This document shows, piece after piece, positions 15,080 to 23,400 of a stretch of 64,000 nt of DNA. Source of the stretch: Phyllobacterium myrsinacearum (lineage in GTDB: Bacteria > Pseudomonadota > Alphaproteobacteria > Rhizobiales > Rhizobiaceae); assembly GCF_014138285.1 (NCBI RefSeq), contig NZ_JACGXN010000003.1, forward strand, positions 310,001 through 374,000, given 5' to 3'. The translations under genes were made by a program, and so were the position numbers. The notes under the pieces are model-generated. The model did no database searches, was not told where the DNA came from, and was given only the letters and a program-made list of their open reading frames with translations. The stretch's first letter is position 1. Each line of letters begins with the position of its first letter.

Positions 15080-15382
15080 TTGCTTGGCCCCGGCGTCGTT
15101 TCGATGAGTGGGATATAAGCCTTTCAATCGGTTTAAAACAGGCACAATCCCTCATTCCACCTATGCATCCGGCGCAATGGTCGTCAAAGTCATGATCGCA
15201 TCAGACTGCACCAATTCAATTTTTGAACTGGCTTGATAGTTGCCTCGGGCCGAATACGTGACCATGGCGGGCGAACCATTTTATCCCTGCGAACAAAAGC
15301 TATGGATAAACTCCATAGCGTAATATGACCGAGGCAAACGTCTTTATTGACGAGCGCGAGCAAGGCTCCGGCCAGCTCATTT

Positions 15383-15703
15383 TCAGGCGCTCGATGACAG
15401 TTTCATCATCACAAGTCCTGCAATGATCCGGCTTGCCGCGGCAATCCGCATGGGGCTGGCCAGCTCACCAAGTATCAGGATACCCACAAGGAAAGCCCCA
15501 ACTGCACCTATTCCAGTCCAGATTGTATAGGCTGTGCCCAAAGGTAGCGTACGCATGGCCAAAGAGAGCAAAGCAAAGCTGCCAAACATGAATATGATCG
15601 TCACAATCGTTGGGATTAAGACCGTAAAACCATCCGATTTTTTCATCGAATAGGCCCAAATGATTTCCAGTATTCCAGCCGTAACGAGATAGACCCAAGC
15701 CAT
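15383..15703 (-). CDS. sugE: SugE/Gdx-type SMR transporter (guanidinium exporter)
   Basis: A 106-residue small multidrug resistance protein with four transmembrane helices. The Gdx-type residues are present: G10, E13 and W16 in the first helix, followed by MKKSDGF, then LAMRTLPLGTAYTIWTGIGA in helix 3. The glutamate carries protons and cation. By family, SugE/Gdx proteins export guanidinium in exchange for protons. The leader holds two hairpins with ACGR loops (15723-15766), which supports guanidine as substrate and inducer. It lies 105 bp downstream of the atpB-like gene on the same strand and may be cotranscribed with it. Confidence 0.92.
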   Translation of the reverse strand: MAWVYLVTAGILEIIWAYSMKKSDGFTVLIPTIVTIIFMFGSFALLSLAMRTLPLGTAYTIWTGIGAVGAFLVGILILGELASPMRIAAASRIIAGLVMMKLSSSA

Positions 15704-15722: not shown

Positions 15723-15766
15723 TCGGGCCGTCCCGAACATTCAACCCGGTTGGGGAGGTCGTCCTC
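15723..15766 (-). promoter_or_regulatory. Guanidine-II (mini-ykkC) riboswitch, sugE leader
   Basis: On the minus strand two short hairpins follow each other. P1 is GAGG-ACGA-CCTC (15766-15755). P2 is TCGGG-ACGG-CCCGA (15736-15723). Both have the GG-ACGR-CC core that defines guanidine-II riboswitches, joined by an 18-nt linker and followed by AAAGG before the start. The genetic context (SugE/Gdx) matches the known use of this class. Confidence 0.88.
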
Positions 15767-15773
15767 TGATCGA

Positions 15774-15799
15774 AAGCGTAGATCCATGGATCTCCGCTT
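15774..15799. repeat. 26-bp inverted repeat between atpB-like gene and riboswitch
   Basis: The core AGATCCATGGATCT is a perfect 14-bp palindrome. It is extended by AAGCG and CGCTT with one mismatched pair on each side of the core. It could weaken read-through from atpB or terminate it, but only TTT follows on the minus strand. Confidence 0.5.
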
Positions 15800-15808
15800 A
15801 CACCCGGT

Positions 15809-16558
15809 TCAATGTCCCGGATGAAGCGCGTCATTTAGATACATGCAGGTAAGCATCGTAAAGACATAAGCCTGAATGACAGACATCATCATTTCGAGTG
15901 CAGTGAGCGCGACGGTCATGGCCAGGGGCAAGAGCGCACCAAGGATACCGATCGCACCAAATCCGCCAAGGGAGACGACAAATCCCGCGAACACTTTCAA
16001 AGTGATATGTCCTGCCAGCATCACCGAAAACAGACGCACGGAGTGGCTGATCGGCCGCGATATATAAGAGACCATCTCAATCGGAACGATAATGGGGGCA
16101 AGCACAAGCGGCACGCCGCCGGGCATAAAAAGCCTGAAGAAACCAAAGCCGTTCCGGACAATGCCGTAGAGCGTGACCGTGCAGAAAACGATCATCGCAA
16201 GTGCAAACGTTACGATGAGATGACTGGTAACGGTGAATGCATAAGGGAAAATACCGATGAGGTTGGCCACCAGTACGAACATGAACAGGGAAAAGACAAG
16301 AGGGAAAAAACGCATTCCCTGTTCCCCTGCATTATCGCGCAAGGTTTTTGCAACAAACTCATAGAGCATTTCAGAAGACGATTGCCATCTGTTTGGAACA
16401 AGCTTCCTGCCATTCGTAGAAAGGAAGAGAAATACGCTTGCGACTACGACCGTTACAACCATATAGGCTGACGAATTCGTAAAGGCGATTTCCCAACCGC
16501 CGATTTCGCCAAAACTGACAAGTGATTTGATTTCGAACTGCTCGATCGGACCTGCCAT
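15809..16558 (-). CDS. atpB: Orphan F0 ATP synthase subunit a paralogue
   Basis: A 249-residue full-length subunit a with about five to six helices. It reads [20 protein letters not shown], then [18 protein letters not shown], and ends [17 protein letters not shown]. The essential helix arginine is kept (R175), H184 follows, and E222 and Q229 are present. The RLFxN asparagine of ordinary subunits is V179. No atpE, atpF or atpI gene is near; alphaproteobacterial F0 genes normally cluster. The leader contains a guanidine-II-like riboswitch with a good promoter just upstream, and sugE follows. This suggests a specialised paralogue expressed with guanidinium export; the biochemical role is unknown. 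Confidence 0.9.
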
Positions 16559-16577
16559 AGGAACCCCCTTTTATGGA

Positions 16578-16620
16578 GGGGCCGTCCCCGATGGTGCGCA
16601 TCGACACAGGTCGTCCTGTG
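16578..16620 (-). promoter_or_regulatory. Guanidine-II (mini-ykkC)-like riboswitch, atpB-paralogue leader
   Basis: On the minus strand P1 is CACAGG-ACGA-CCTGTG (16620-16605) and P2 is GGGG-ACGG-CCCC (16589-16578). Both loops match ACGR and both stems close with GG/CC, as in the sugE leader. The linker is 15 nt. The 3' strand of P2 (CCCC) could instead pair with the GGGGG of the ribosome binding site that follows, giving a simple translational switch. The riboswitch class is well known; its link to an atpB gene is, to my knowledge, unusual. Confidence 0.82.
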
Positions 16621-16627
16621 CCCGGTT

Positions 16628-16656
16628 CTAATAGAATCGAATCTGACGGCTGACAA
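16628..16656 (-). promoter_or_regulatory. Sigma-70-type promoter for the atpB-paralogue/sugE unit
   Basis: On the minus strand TTGTCA (16656-16651) and TATTAG (16633-16628) are separated by 17 nt. The predicted start near 16621 would place riboswitch hairpin P1 at the very 5' end of the transcript. Confidence 0.6.
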
Positions 16657-16889: not shown

Positions 16890-18743
16890 GTGTCGATTTC
16901 AGATGTAATCTACCGTCCGTTCGAAAGGCTGATCCGGCCGCTCGACATTCCTTACCAGCCGCTGCCTACCAAGGGACCGGTGGCGGTTCTCATTCACTTC
17001 ATCTCGATGTTCCGCGGTGTTTTGATCGCCTTGGCGCTTTGCTCCATGGCGGTCGAGGCTATTAATCTGGCGATTGTCTGGGGGCTTTCGATCATCGTCG
17101 ATGGTGTGACAGAAATGGGCGCCCCCGCGTTCCTGCATAGCGAATGGCCACTGCTTGCTTTCCTCGGCCTCCTGATCTTTCCGGCGATGCCGGTTGCCTC
17201 GTTCCTTACGAACACTCTCACCTCGCATACGCTCGGCGTCGGCATGCCCGCCGCCATCCAGTGGCAGGGGCACAAGGCGGTGGAGCGGCAGGATCTCGCT
17301 TTTTTTCATGATCTTTTCGCCGGACAGGTAACCTCGCGGCTATCGCAGGTGGCGTCTGCCGTCCAACAGCAGATCATTGCCGCGTTTCAGTCCATCCCGC
17401 GCTTCCTGCTGCAGATGGCCGGCTCACTGGCACTGCTCAGCGCGTTGTCCTGGCAGCTTGCTTTACCGGTCCTCGTCTGGATCGCGCTCAACATTGCGCT
17501 CGCCGTCAGGCTGGCGCCGACCTTTGCCGAACGGTCACGTCGCACCGCCAAGCAGCGCAGTCTCGTCGCCGGTACCATCACTGATCTTTACAGCAATATC
17601 CAGACGATCAAACAGTTTGCGGCCGAGGATAGCGAGGCGGGCGCAATCCGCCGCATTCTTCAGAAGGCTGTTCGGACACAGCACGAGGAACAACGCATCT
17701 ACCGGACATCCGAACTGATCGTTGTGGCGCTCAACATGGCGCTCTGGCTGGCGATGATTTCGATCGGTTTCTCGGGGCTCGTCAACGGCTTTCTCACGGT
17801 CGGAGAGTTCGTGGCAGCGGTCTACATTCTCCACCGGCTGTCAGGGCACACGTTCACCTTCCTGCAGATGGGCCAGCAGATCTTCCAGGCAATAGGCACC
17901 ATCAAGGATGCTATGCCGGTGATGACGACGCCGCCTACCATCACCGACATACCGGACGCAGCTGAACTGACGGTTAATGATGGGGAGATCCGTTTCGAAA
18001 ACGTCCGCTTCGCTTACAAGTTCGGCAAGTCTGTTATCAATGATCTGTCCCTGACAGTCCGGCCCGGCGAAAAGGTAGGTTTGGTTGGCCTCTCCGGCGC
18101 CGGCAAGACCACCTTGGTCAACCTGCTGCTGCGCTTCTACGACATACGAGACGGCACGGTCTTGATCGACGGGCAAGACATCCGCACGGTCACGCAGGCA
18201 AGCCTTCGCCGAAACATCGGCGTCATCGCGCAGGACGTCGCGCTGCTGCATCGATCGGTCGGCGACAATATCCGTTACGGCCGGCCTGGGTCGACGCAGG
18301 ATGAGATCGAACAGGCGGCAAAGACGGCAAGGGCCGACGTGTTCATTGCCGATCTCGCGGACGTCGAAGGCCGCAAAGGCTATGAGGCTTTCGTCGGGGA
18401 TCGCGGCATCAAGCTCTCCGGCGGTCAGCGCCAGCGTATCGCCATCGCGCGCGTGCTGCTGAAGGACGCGCCAATCCTGGTTCTGGACGAGGCAACCTCC
18501 GCCCTGGACAGTGAATCCGAGGCGGCCATTCAAGAAAAGCTCAATCTGGTGATGGACGGGAAGACGGTGATCGCCATCGCACATCGCCTTTCAACCATTG
18601 CCAGGATGGACCGGATCGTCGTGCTCGATCAGGGGCGCATCGTGGAAGAAGGCAGGCCTGACGAACTGGTCGAACAGGATGGCCTGTTTGCCCGTTTGTG
18701 GAAACACCAGACCGGCGGCTTTATTCCGGAGGAAATCAGTTAA
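16890..18743 (+). CDS. ABC exporter, fused membrane and ATPase domains
   Basis: A 617-residue half-transporter. The N-terminal membrane domain (about 1-340) has six predicted helices. The ATPase domain (about 365-605) shows Walker A GLSGAGKTT, signature LSGGQRQR, Walker B ILVLDEATSALD and H-loop AHRLS. Two copies should form a dimeric exporter, as in the MsbA/multidrug group; the substrate is unknown. The start is GTG at 16890, with GAGTGA upstream; I see no in-frame ATG at a sensible place. It stands alone, with a 940-bp non-coding region downstream. Confidence 0.9.
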   Translation: MSISDVIYRPFERLIRPLDIPYQPLPTKGPVAVLIHFISMFRGVLIALALCSMAVEAINLAIVWGLSIIVDGVTEMGAPAFLHSEWPLLAFLGLLIFPAMPVASFLTNTLTSHTLGVGMPAAIQWQGHKAVERQDLAFFHDLFAGQVTSRLSQVASAVQQQIIAAFQSIPRFLLQMAGSLALLSALSWQLALPVLVWIALNIALAVRLAPTFAERSRRTAKQRSLVAGTITDLYSNIQTIKQFAAEDSEAGAIRRILQKAVRTQHEEQRIYRTSELIVVALNMALWLAMISIGFSGLVNGFLTVGEFVAAVYILHRLSGHTFTFLQMGQQIFQAIGTIKDAMPVMTTPPTITDIPDAAELTVNDGEIRFENVRFAYKFGKSVINDLSLTVRPGEKVGLVGLSGAGKTTLVNLLLRFYDIRDGTVLIDGQDIRTVTQASLRRNIGVIAQDVALLHRSVGDNIRYGRPGSTQDEIEQAAKTARADVFIADLADVEGRKGYEAFVGDRGIKLSGGQRQRIAIARVLLKDAPILVLDEATSALDSESEAAIQEKLNLVMDGKTVIAIAHRLSTIARMDRIVVLDQGRIVEEGRPDELVEQDGLFARLWKHQTGGFIPEEIS

Positions 18744-21070: not shown

Positions 21071-21088
21071 CCTTCGCATGTGCGAAGG
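21071..21088. promoter_or_regulatory. Hairpin in the carbonic anhydrase leader
   Basis: CCTTCGCA and TGCGAAGG are perfect 8-bp arms separated by TG. The repeat lies 81 bp upstream of the preferred start of the carbonic anhydrase gene. Confidence 0.5.
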
Positions 21089-21169
21089 AATCCTCCCTTC
21101 GCCGCAATGAATTCGTCAAATGATACATTTGATGTTCACGCAACGCTTGGCAACGAGAGAGTACTCACC

Positions 21170-21880
21170 ATGGGTAATCTACTAAAAGGCATCTCGACAT
21201 TCCACGGCGCAGTCTTTCCGAATGACTCCGCTCTCTATCAAAAACTTGCAAAAGAGGGACAACGGCCACAGGCTCTGATGATATCGTGCGCAGACAGTCG
21301 GGTAATGCCGGAAACCATTACCCAATCGGGCCCGGGGGAACTGTTTGTCTGTCGCAACGCGGGTAACATCGTCCCCCCGTTTTCAACAGCCAATGGCGGC
21401 GTATCGTCTGCGATCGAGTATGCAGTTGTTGCGCTCGGTGTCCGTGACATAATCGTCTGTGGGCACTCCGATTGTGGAGCCATGAAAGGTCTCTGCCACC
21501 CTGAAATTCTGACCCCTATGCCCAACGTGGCTGCATGGCTCAAACATAGTCATGCGGCCTATTCCATTGTTTGTGAGGCATATCCTGCCGACCTTTCCGG
21601 ACCTGATCGTGTTCGTGCTGTCGCAATGGAAAATATCATAGTGCAGCTTGACCACTTGCGTACACACCCTTCGGTTGCCGCCAAACTCGCCACCAATGAA
21701 ATAGTCCTGCATGGCTGGTTCTTCGACATCGAGACCGGCGAGGTTCAGGTCTACGATGGCGCAGTTTCGGCATTCATAAAAGTAAAGGAAGATCAACCGT
21801 TGCCGGCAGCCGTAACAGGGCGTGGCAGGCCTCGCATCACACACCAGACAGCAAATCGCGCTGGGGGAGTAATGAGCTGA
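21170..21880 (+). CDS. Beta-class carbonic anhydrase
   Basis: A 236-residue beta carbonic anhydrase. The zinc ligands are C40, H99 and C102, within SCADSRV and CGHSDCGAMKG. The catalytic D42/R44 pair is present. The enzyme interconverts CO2 and bicarbonate in the cytoplasm. The start at ATG 21170 gives the usual MGNLLKGISTFHGAVFP beginning and has GAGAG upstream; the frame is open to 21080. The stop overlaps the SulP start by one base (TGATG), so the two proteins are made together, which fits bicarbonate supply. Confidence 0.93.
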   Translation: MGNLLKGISTFHGAVFPNDSALYQKLAKEGQRPQALMISCADSRVMPETITQSGPGELFVCRNAGNIVPPFSTANGGVSSAIEYAVVALGVRDIIVCGHSDCGAMKGLCHPEILTPMPNVAAWLKHSHAAYSIVCEAYPADLSGPDRVRAVAMENIIVQLDHLRTHPSVAAKLATNEIVLHGWFFDIETGEVQVYDGAVSAFIKVKEDQPLPAAVTGRGRPRITHQTANRAGGVMS

Positions 21881-23400
21881 TGACCAACACTTCACTATCC
21901 CGCGATCTGGCATCCTCGTTGGTTGTTTTTCTCGTGGCTATGCCTCTGTGTCTTGGCATAGCGGTCGCGTCAGGCGTCCCCGTTGCCATGGGAATCGTTT
22001 CCGGCATCGTCGGAGGTATCATTGTCGGATTGTTGGCAGGCTCGCCACTTCAGGTGTCTGGTCCGGCCGCCGGACTTGCAGTCATCGTTTTCAGTTTTGT
22101 GCAGCAGTATGGCGTGGCAATGCTTGGGCCAGTTTTGATTGCCGCCGGGCTTCTGCAGATATTGGCCGGGTTTTTGAAAATAGGCTCCTGGTTTCGTGCC
22201 ATCTCTCCGGCTGTCGTTCATGGTATGCTTGCGGGTATCGGAATACTGATCATTCTGGGACAGATTCACGTGGTGATGGGTGCAGAACCATCTGCCGGCG
22301 GCCTGGAGAATGTAGCCGCACTTGATAACAGCGTCGGCAATCTATGGCGTGGAGACGCCAACGCGCTGATAGCGCTTGGTATCGGCGTTGTCTCGCTCGC
22401 GGCCATGGTCGCTTGGGAAAAATTTCGCCCAAAGGCACTGTCACTCGTGCCAGGGGCACTGGTTGGTGTTGGCCTTGGCACTGTGTTGGCCGTTGCTCTT
22501 CATTTGCCAATTGCAAGAGTTGAAGTGCCGGACACCCTGCTGCAAGGATTGTCATTTCCGAACATCTCAGATTTCCTGCTACTCGCCCAACCGGGGATCA
22601 TGATCACGGTATTGGTCATTGCCGTTATTGCAAGTGCCGAAACGCTCCTGTCCGCGGCGGCGGTCGACCGCATGCATGATGGCAAGCGCACGCATTTTAA
22701 TAAAGAGCTGTTTGCTCAAGGTGTAGGAAACAGCATATGTGGCATACTGGGGGCCTTGCCCATTACCGGGGTTATCGTTCGATCGTCTGCCAACATTCAA
22801 GCGGGAGCCAGAACTCGTCTTTCAACGATTTTGCACGGTGTATGGATTCTTGCGCTCGTGGCGATGTTTCCGCAGTTGCTCGGCATGGTGCCTTTAACAG
22901 CTCTCGCTGCGGTTCTTCTCGTTACAGGCTGGCGACTTATTAGTCTTCATCATGTCCGCCACCTCTTTGATCATCACGGGTGGATACCGGTTGGTATATG
23001 GGTAGCAACCGTTGCTCTGGTGGTTATTCAGGACCTACTGATCGGCGTTGCAACAGGTTTGGCATTGTCAGTTATGGAAATCCTGCCATATCTGCGTCAA
23101 CGGCTGCATATCGGCGAGGACGATAAGGACAACGTGATCAGTGTCAGGTTGAAGGGGGCAGGAACGTACAAGGACGTGCCGAGACTACTCACCACATTGG
23201 AAGCCTTGCCGAAGGACAAAATGGTTGAAATCGTTTGTGTTGATCTTCAGTTTTTGGATCACACATGCACCGAAACAATCAGTGAATGGCTCCGTCGCGA
23301 AAGACGATCCGGCAGGCAGCTTGCAGTAACAAACACTCCTGATAGCCACCATCCGCGTCTAATCGCGCACTTCAAACGTTTTTCGGCCGAGGTAGCATGA
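21880..23400 (+). CDS. SulP-family anion (probably bicarbonate) transporter
   Basis: A 506-residue SulP protein with ten or more membrane helices. The first conserved block reads VAMPLCLGIAVASGVP, then SGPAAGLAVIVFSFV. A short C-terminal STAS-like domain starts near residue 415 (VISVRLKGAGTYKDV). Coupling to a carbonic anhydrase gene points to bicarbonate transport, as for BicA-like proteins; sulfate is the alternative. It overlaps the upstream gene by one base. The next gene is convergent, nearly 300 bp away. Confidence 0.9.
   Translation: MTNTSLSRDLASSLVVFLVAMPLCLGIAVASGVPVAMGIVSGIVGGIIVGLLAGSPLQVSGPAAGLAVIVFSFVQQYGVAMLGPVLIAAGLLQILAGFLKIGSWFRAISPAVVHGMLAGIGILIILGQIHVVMGAEPSAGGLENVAALDNSVGNLWRGDANALIALGIGVVSLAAMVAWEKFRPKALSLVPGALVGVGLGTVLAVALHLPIARVEVPDTLLQGLSFPNISDFLLLAQPGIMITVLVIAVIASAETLLSAAAVDRMHDGKRTHFNKELFAQGVGNSICGILGALPITGVIVRSSANIQAGARTRLSTILHGVWILALVAMFPQLLGMVPLTALAAVLLVTGWRLISLHHVRHLFDHHGWIPVGIWVATVALVVIQDLLIGVATGLALSVMEILPYLRQRLHIGEDDKDNVISVRLKGAGTYKDVPRLLTTLEALPKDKMVEIVCVDLQFLDHTCTETISEWLRRERRSGRQLAVTNTPDSHHPRLIAHFKRFSAEVA

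What the first reader, a model, noticed from the sequence alone, without database searches (positions are those of the whole stretch)
16578..16620. Guanidine-II riboswitch in front of an atpB paralogue
The leader shows two hairpins with ACGA and ACGG loops and GG/CC closing pairs (CACAGG-ACGA-CCTGTG, GGGG-ACGG-CCCC), as in the confirmed mini-ykkC class. It starts at the predicted transcription start of a promoter with a 17-nt spacer (16628-16656). The class is known to control guanidine export and degradation genes; an ATP synthase subunit a gene behind it is unexpected. CCCC in P2 can pair with the GGGGG ribosome binding site, giving a plausible translation switch.
Basis: partly seen in the sequence, partly recalled or inferred. 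Interest (0 to 1): 0.88.

Follow-up and report, generated by a model that had tools for sequence, protein, structure and literature searches.

The report
Guanidine switch on ATP-synthase subunit copy
A known RNA sensor for the toxic molecule guanidine sits in front of a spare copy of the proton-channel subunit of ATP synthase, an arrangement repeated in dozens of related bacteria, which suggests that this energy machine may be a natural target of guanidine and that cells make a special part for it when guanidine is present.

Summary
Rfam's guanidine-II model matches 16622..16578 (minus strand, 39.2 bits; gathering score 32). The gene behind it is a full-length second atpB (ATP synthase subunit a, 64% identical to the genome's other copy). 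It is not a one-off: these atpB copies form one clade in Hyphomicrobiales. Of 43 found by protein similarity alone, 42 have the motif within 420 nt upstream, against 0 of 67 other atpB genes; in a second search 18 of 18 (9 new). The copies are under purifying selection and keep the essential arginine, but a half-channel Asn (E. coli N214) is Val and a neighbouring Leu is His in 48 of 48. The genome has one c-subunit gene. Best reading: a guanidine-induced, guanidinium-tolerant replacement for subunit a. The link to guanidine sensing rests on comparison; the tolerance mechanism is inference; no binding or expression was measured. My searches found nothing in print on it; key papers could not be read.

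The parts
16628..16656 (-). Candidate promoter: TTGTCA, 17 nt, TATTAG; the start point would fall near the foot of P1
   Evidence: Read from the sequence; not listed by the strict scan; -35-like hexamer at similar spacing in 30 of 48 related leaders
16578..16622 (-). Guanidine-II (mini-ykkC) riboswitch aptamer 1, P1 16603-16622, P2 16578-16590
   Evidence: RF01068, 39.2 bits over gathering 32; covariation over 34 related leaders, this one included
16564..16568 (-). GGGGG, likely ribosome binding site of atpB; pairs with the P2 3' strand in the predicted ligand-free fold
15809..16558 (-). atpB paralogue, ATP synthase subunit a, 249 aa
   Evidence: PF00119 216.2 bits; NF004482 366.6 bits over cut-off 225; 64% to the genome's other atpB; tree
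15723..15770 (-). Guanidine-II aptamer 2 between atpB and sugE; below Rfam's gathering score
   Evidence: 27.9 bits, gathering 32, E = 0.0036 in the 1.7 kb searched; a guanidine-II motif lies in this gap in 18 of 26 loci with sugE behind atpB, window included, some near-duplicates
15383..15703 (-). SMR transporter gene of the SugE/Gdx type, 106 aa
   Evidence: PF00893 95.9 bits; NCBIfam SugE model 113.1 bits, under its cut-off of 126; best PDB sequence matches 8vxu and 6wk5
15299..15319 (-). Terminator-like hairpin after sugE, possible end of the unit
   Evidence: Consensus scan: 6 such sites in 1.75 kb against 2.2 in shuffles

Best explanation
The unit is a guanidine-stress operon with two translation switches. 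When guanidinium rises, riboswitch 1 releases the ribosome binding site of a dedicated AtpB paralogue and riboswitch 2 that of a Gdx-type exporter. The exporter removes guanidinium in exchange for protons. The AtpB paralogue replaces the housekeeping subunit a in newly assembled ATP synthase; its altered surface beside the essential arginine (Leu to His three residues before it, Asn to Val four residues after it) makes the rotor-stator contact less open to guanidinium, the free form of that arginine's head group, so ATP synthesis continues. Shown here by comparison: the aptamers, their link to this one AtpB clade, purifying selection, kept catalytic residues, a single c-subunit gene in this genome. 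Inferred: guanidine binding, ON-switching, assembly into Fo, guanidinium tolerance.
For: Aptamer 1 over Rfam's threshold; aptamer 2 weaker. The AtpB paralogues are one clade of 49 rows, SH-aLRT 100, apart from 32 other AtpB (quick tree). Motif within 420 nt upstream in 42 of 43 paralogues found by protein search alone (48 of 49 with the window's and five that came from riboswitch searches), 0 of 67 other atpB; 18 of 18 in a second protein search of 199 family genomes, 9 of which share their first 300 coding bases with earlier loci. Covarying stems: 39 cells with double changes, reached by 0 of 500 shuffles. Kept: R175 (E. coli R210), H184 (E219), E222 (H245), Q229 (Q252). Changed in 48 of 48 against 35 of 35 canonical: L to H172, N to V179, V to M225; H172 and V179 in 120 of 120 best database clusters, M225 in 119. 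dN/dS 0.018-0.155 in 13 pairs, canonical 0.043-0.139 in 6. One c-subunit gene. Passages: N214 and Q252 sit by the c-ring carboxylate and R210 (PMC8754430); [quoted passage not shown] biguanides inhibit mitochondrial ATP synthase, and guanidinium can mimic and displace arginine (PMC4148174).
Against: No guanidine binding, expression or protein data. In PMC4148174 metformin and buformin did not inhibit ATP synthesis, and the guanidinium effects in the passages I saw were on complex I. H at position 172 also occurs in the Paracoccus subunit of 5dn6, and hydrophobic residues occur naturally at N214 elsewhere (PMC9447477); PMC6377231 ranks that Asn below other residues in importance. So these changes need not concern guanidinium. 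The access model of the switch over 17 leaders was no better than shuffles. Aptamer 2 is below threshold, and its leader folds no better than shuffles. Only 19 of 199 family genomes carry the paralogue, and most riboswitch loci sampled in the order have other genes next.
Confidence: 0.45

Rival explanations
1. Guanidine-controlled atpB paralogue whose job is to retune bioenergetics rather than to resist guanidinium: an Fo with an altered proton input channel that slows or biases the motor while Gdx spends the proton gradient.
For: The N214 position shapes proton entry to the c-ring: among the mutants in PMC8754430, aN214L had the greatest effect on pH dependence (passage). Two related loci (L063, L049) have guanidine-II also in front of a cation-exchanger-type gene beside the atpB unit, and L063 one towards an MrpF gene (Pfam was run on L063 only), so cation and proton balance may be the theme.
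Against: Does not explain why guanidinium in particular should call for it; the other half-channel residues compared are kept.
Confidence: 0.3
2. The riboswitch serves the exporter; atpB is a passenger caught between switch and sugE.
For: SMR genes are the main partner of guanidine-II: within 400 nt in 54 of 110 sampled loci of the order.
Against: 41 of 67 paralogue loci have no sugE within 450 nt downstream, and 40 of those 41 still have the switch (L054 is the exception). In 18 of the 26 with sugE, the exporter has its own motif in front. Purifying selection on atpB. Some loci are near-duplicates.
Confidence: 0.05
3. The paralogue does not join ATP synthase but acts alone as a membrane pore or carrier for guanidinium.
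For: It is encoded with an exporter; the eight window ORFs given to Pfam include no other atp gene.
Against: Subunit a is not known to work without the c-ring (recalled); the residues kept include those around the arginine that meets the c-ring.
Confidence: 0.08
4. Chance hairpins or a dead aptamer.
For: The aptamer is only 45 nt.
Against: Score, conservation and covariation.
Confidence: 0.02

Closest known systems
Guanidine-II (mini-ykkC) riboswitch, RF01068
   Same: Two hairpins with ACGR loops and G-C closing pairs, score over Rfam's threshold, close to the ribosome binding site, Gdx-type gene in the unit
   Different: First gene behind it encodes a subunit of ATP synthase; two elements in one unit, one per gene, the second below threshold
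Na+-I riboswitches in front of Na+-driven ATP synthase genes (PMC9971707, passages)
   Same: Riboswitch control of ATP synthase components is therefore not new in itself
   Different: Other ligand; genes for ATP synthase complexes driven by a sodium gradient, where ligand and driving ion are the same; here a lone second copy of subunit a and a ligand that is not the driving ion
F1Fo ATP synthase subunit a (AtpB), PF00119
   Same: Full length; R210, E219, H245 and Q252 counterparts kept; AlphaFold model (pLDDT 71.9) matches subunit a chains in the PDB
   Different: Separate clade away from the other atp genes; V179 for N214, H172, M225; behind a guanidine riboswitch
Gdx/SugE guanidinium exporters (SMR family, PF00893)
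   Same: Sequence; E13 and W16 in place (recalled as Gdx active-site residues); riboswitch match in front
   Different: Under NCBIfam's SugE cut-off (113.1 of 126 bits); encoded behind atpB

Membership tests
Guanidine-II riboswitch | Covariance-model score over Rfam's gathering threshold (aptamer 1) | tested here: met
   39.2 over 32
Guanidine-II riboswitch | Covariance-model score over Rfam's gathering threshold (aptamer 2) | tested here: not met
   27.9 under 32, E = 0.0036 in 1.7 kb
Guanidine-II riboswitch | Two hairpins with ACGR loops | tested here: met
   ACGA and ACGG in both elements of the window; both loops ACGR in 34 of 34 aligned atpB leaders, which had been chosen from model hits
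Guanidine-II riboswitch | Covarying stems | tested here: met
   7 of 13 pairs with change on both sides (9 of 500 shuffles reach that), 92.1% of cells paired (0 of 500)
Guanidine-II riboswitch | Specific guanidinium binding | not testable with these tools
   Needs in-line probing or calorimetry
Guanidine-II riboswitch | Ligand releases the Shine-Dalgarno sequence | tested here: inconclusive
   Predicted for the window leader (unpaired share 0.26 to 0.67); over 17 leaders mean gain 0.047 against 0.036 in shuffles; P2:RBS stem mean 5.7 against 4.3, but p under 0.05 in only 5 of 17 and 0.335 for the window
ATP synthase subunit a | Essential arginine (E. coli R210) with counterparts of E219, H245, Q252 | tested here: met
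   R175, H184, E222, Q229; numbering by motif and offset
ATP synthase subunit a | Asn at the E. coli 214 position (usual, not universal) | tested here: not met
   Val in 48 of 48 paralogues; Asn in 35 of 35 canonical and 29 of 29 class sequences; other residues occur naturally (PMC9447477), so this does not exclude membership
ATP synthase subunit a | Assembly with c-ring and stator | not testable with these tools
   Needs purification and mass spectrometry
Gdx exporter | SugE-type SMR sequence | tested here: inconclusive
   PF00893 over cut-off; SugE equivalog 113.1 under 126; nearest PDB chains 8vxu, 6wk5 (6wk5 recalled as Gdx-Clo)
Gdx exporter | Guanidinium/proton antiport | not testable with these tools
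   Needs a transport assay

The most novel reading that the evidence does not exclude
Bacteria sense guanidinium by RNA and respond by exchanging the ion-channel subunit of ATP synthase for a guanidinium-proof version, because free guanidinium competes with the arginine that couples proton flow to rotation: a small-molecule-controlled remodelling of the Fo motor, and a physiological answer to what guanidine poisons.
Probability: 0.35. Interest if true: 0.93.

Novelty: new variant of a known kind. Interest (0 to 1): 0.8.

Why it matters
Guanidine riboswitches are widespread, but what guanidine harms in cells is open; [quoted passage not shown] A conserved link between the sensor and the Fo channel subunit names a candidate target and makes it directly testable, at a residue position (N214) already studied in motor work. 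Riboswitch control of ATP synthase genes has a precedent in Na+-I riboswitches (PMC9971707, passages), but there the ligand is the driving ion; a toxic ligand that calls up a second copy of one subunit would be a different logic.

Tried and rejected
Considered and disfavoured: chance hairpin; pseudogene (dN/dS); passenger gene; a whole second Fo (only one c-subunit gene found).

Led nowhere or went against the reading: binding-site access modelling of 17 short leaders gave a mean gain of 0.047 against 0.036 for shuffled linkers, sd 0.11. In the stem-length test 5 of 17 leaders reach p under 0.05, the window does not (0.335), two leaders have p = 1. The leader of aptamer 2 folds no better than shuffles, 118 of 200; that of aptamer 1, 7 of 200. 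The consensus scan listed no promoter. The AlphaFold model is of middling confidence (pLDDT 71.9, pTM 0.61) and was used only to check the fold. The plasmid collection held one relative at E <= 1e-80, in Phyllobacterium. In a class-wide sample of 289 genomes, own included, the best match in another genome was 59%, so the clade looks limited to the order. H172 is not unique: the Paracoccus chain 5dn6 has it.

Selection and dropped rows. One search kept the best 80 of 562 relatives, so the 43 paralogues are not a full list. Which loci are paralogues was set from protein identity and coverage before the tree; the tree agreed. The 49 include the window's and five found through riboswitch searches; the 43 are the fair count. 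The motif counts are by a text pattern; Rfam at its threshold gives 37 of 43, missing L042, L054, L060, L068, L069, L100 upstream of atpB, and 0 of 17 other atpB loci scanned. The 34 leaders are the window and 33 of those 37 (four near-identical Ensifer leaders left out), so the covariation leans towards the Rfam structure. In the order census I fetched 110 of the places listed, leaving out the window's own and ten weaker ones; one (L151) did not match my pattern. In one search one of 14 dN/dS pairs gave no value (saturated); the promoter row of L063 used a neighbouring riboswitch. The limit of 1e-104 was chosen by me from the 4.9e-98 of the own canonical copy. My notebook says 8 of the 18 loci repeat earlier ones and 6 of 17 stems; the outputs show 9 and 5.

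Literature: searches listed no paper that by title or abstract links a guanidine riboswitch with ATP synthase subunit a. Of their hits I looked into PMC3766115, PMC2864571, PMC12186494, PMC5596092, PMC7266159, PMC4148174, PMC8754430, PMC9447477, PMC7544219, PMC9971707 and PMC12342949 by term; the others I saw as listings only, and searches listed 40 of 42 and 15 of 19. Additional file 8 of PMC2864571, which lists genes behind mini-ykkC, could not be read, and PMC5558903 and PMC5340285 are not held, so an earlier mention cannot be excluded. For each paper cited I saw passages, not the whole text.

Full report
What is there. On the minus strand the window carries a 45-nt guanidine-II aptamer (16622..16578), an atpB paralogue that starts after a further 19 nt (16558..15809), a second guanidine-II match (15770..15723) and a SugE/Gdx-type SMR gene (15703..15383), followed by a terminator-like hairpin (15319..15299). 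Aptamer 1 scores 39.2 bits against a gathering score of 32 and is the only match in the genome at E <= 0.001. Aptamer 2 scores 27.9, below that threshold, E = 0.0036 for the 1.7 kb searched. That a motif lies in the same gap in 18 of 26 loci with sugE behind atpB, window included, makes it credible. The divergent neighbour at 16890 is an ABC exporter by Pfam.

The second atpB. The genome has two atpB genes, 64% identical. The other lies next to the only c-subunit gene found in the genome; its further neighbours look like atpI and atpF by eye. So the paralogue, if it works as subunit a, must share the single c-ring.

Not a one-off. A protein search of named genomes gave 80 loci, a capped list. 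Forty-three of them, with the window's copy and five loci brought in by riboswitch searches, form one clade of 49 rows with SH-aLRT 100 (quick tree). Of the 43, 42 have a guanidine-II motif within 420 nt upstream (48 of all 49); a Shinella daejeonensis locus lacks it. None of 67 other atpB genes has it. Rfam's own threshold is passed upstream of 37 of the 43, and by none of 17 other atpB loci scanned (recount). A second search, in 199 genomes of the family, found the paralogue in 19 including the window's; the 18 others all have the motif, 9 of them not seen before. An order-wide search found RF01068 in 111 of 397 genomes; of 110 places fetched, 54 have an SMR gene within 400 nt and 5 have atpB next. 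So atpB is a minor partner of the switch, but the switch is a near-constant partner of this atpB clade. In a class-wide sample of 289 genomes the best match in another genome was 59%. Named carriers include Rhizobium, Ensifer, Shinella, Agrobacterium, Brucella (former Ochrobactrum, recalled), Aminobacter, Nitratireductor, Phyllobacterium, Kaistia, Afipia, Bosea and Reyranella, all Hyphomicrobiales as far as I know; only Reyranella was looked up.

RNA evidence. On 34 aligned atpB leaders, chosen from those that pass the Rfam model, 92.1% of cells pair, 7 of 13 pairs change on both sides (9 of 500 shuffles reach that) and 39 cells show double changes (0 of 500); sliding the partners drops pairing to 30-58%. 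Both loops are ACGR in 34 of 34. The predicted ligand-free fold of the window leader keeps P1 but breaks P2: CCCCU pairs with the binding site, GGGGAC with GUUCCU, and CCAU with AUGG at the start codon. That agrees with the anti-Shine-Dalgarno model proposed for the class (figure legend in PMC7544219). As a rule over 17 short leaders it was not supported by the access model and weakly by stem length: mean 5.7 against 4.3, p under 0.05 in 5 of 17, 0.335 for the window. A second leader type puts 97-269 nt between switch and atpB; in 24 of 27 such leaders an open frame of 21-87 codons starts within 70 nt of the switch, and in 17 of 27 one ends within 20 nt of the atpB start. That would fit translational coupling, but I ran no control for it.

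Protein evidence. Across 48 distinct paralogues and 35 distinct canonical Rhizobiales sequences, E161, S164, S167, S171, R175, H184, E222 and Q229 are shared, while 172 is H against L, 179 is V against N and 225 is M against V without exception. By motif and offset these are E. coli E196, S199, S202, S206, R210, E219, H245, Q252, and L207, N214 and residue 248. H172 and V179 stand in 120 of 120 listed clusters of a 5.8-billion-protein search, M225 in 119. Residues 172, 175 and 179 lie in one long predicted helix. H172 is not special to the clade, since the Paracoccus chain has it. Passages of PMC8754430 and PMC9447477 place N214 and Q252 beside the c-ring carboxylate and the R210 guanidinium, and report that aN214L shifts the proton-transfer pKa values; [quoted passage not shown] dN/dS is 0.018-0.155 in 13 paralogue pairs and 0.043-0.139 in 6 canonical pairs. 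These genes are under constraint.

Mechanism. The comparison shows that this AtpB clade is tied to guanidine sensing. That it replaces subunit a is the simplest use of a full-length, constrained subunit a. That the change at N214 keeps guanidinium away from the arginine site is inference. Guanidinium is the arginine head group; passages of PMC4148174 state that it can mimic and displace arginine and that biguanides inhibit mitochondrial ATP synthase, but the same paper found no inhibition of ATP synthesis by metformin or buformin, and the guanidinium effects in the passages I saw concern complex I, which could itself be the main target. The rival that the paralogue retunes the motor under stress is close behind. 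Two loci in which guanidine-II also precedes a cation-exchanger-type gene next to the atpB unit fit either.

Novelty. The riboswitch class, the Gdx link and subunit a are known, and Na+-I riboswitches are reported to control ATP synthase genes (PMC9971707). I found no report of a guanidine riboswitch with atpB in the searches named under Tried and rejected; a key supplementary table and the 2017 validation paper could not be read.

Noticed in passing
L063 656-2346 and L049 1033-2349: Agrobacterium locus L063 has four guanidine-II matches in 1.7 kb: before an Na/Ca-exchanger-family gene (PF01699), before atpB, one in between, and one on the other strand towards an MrpF gene (PF04066). L049 has a similar exchanger-type gene (by eye) and atpB, each behind a match.
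   Followed up: partly
Census loci such as L139, L034, L120 and L014, L026: Behind guanidine-II in the order, one protein cluster found in 22 of 109 loci is a PACE/chlorhexidine-type transporter (PF05232, one representative tested) and one found in 24 of 109 is DUF1989 (PF09347, one representative tested).
   Followed up: partly
L038, L045, L047, L060, L062, L063 and others, between switch and atpB: Long leaders hold a short open frame that in 17 of 27 ends within 20 nt of the atpB start; no control was run.
   Followed up: partly
L054 upstream of 2501: Shinella daejeonensis keeps the AtpB paralogue but shows no guanidine-II motif within 420 nt, unlike the Shinella loci L045 and L052: a possible natural loss.
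   Followed up: no
window 21080-23400 (+): Carbonic anhydrase gene (PF00484) that overlaps a SulP transporter gene (PF00916) by one base: perhaps a bicarbonate uptake pair.
   Followed up: no
window 15774-15799 (-), just after atpB: An imperfect hairpin, seen by eye, lies between the atpB stop and aptamer 2; the terminator scan did not list it.
   Followed up: no
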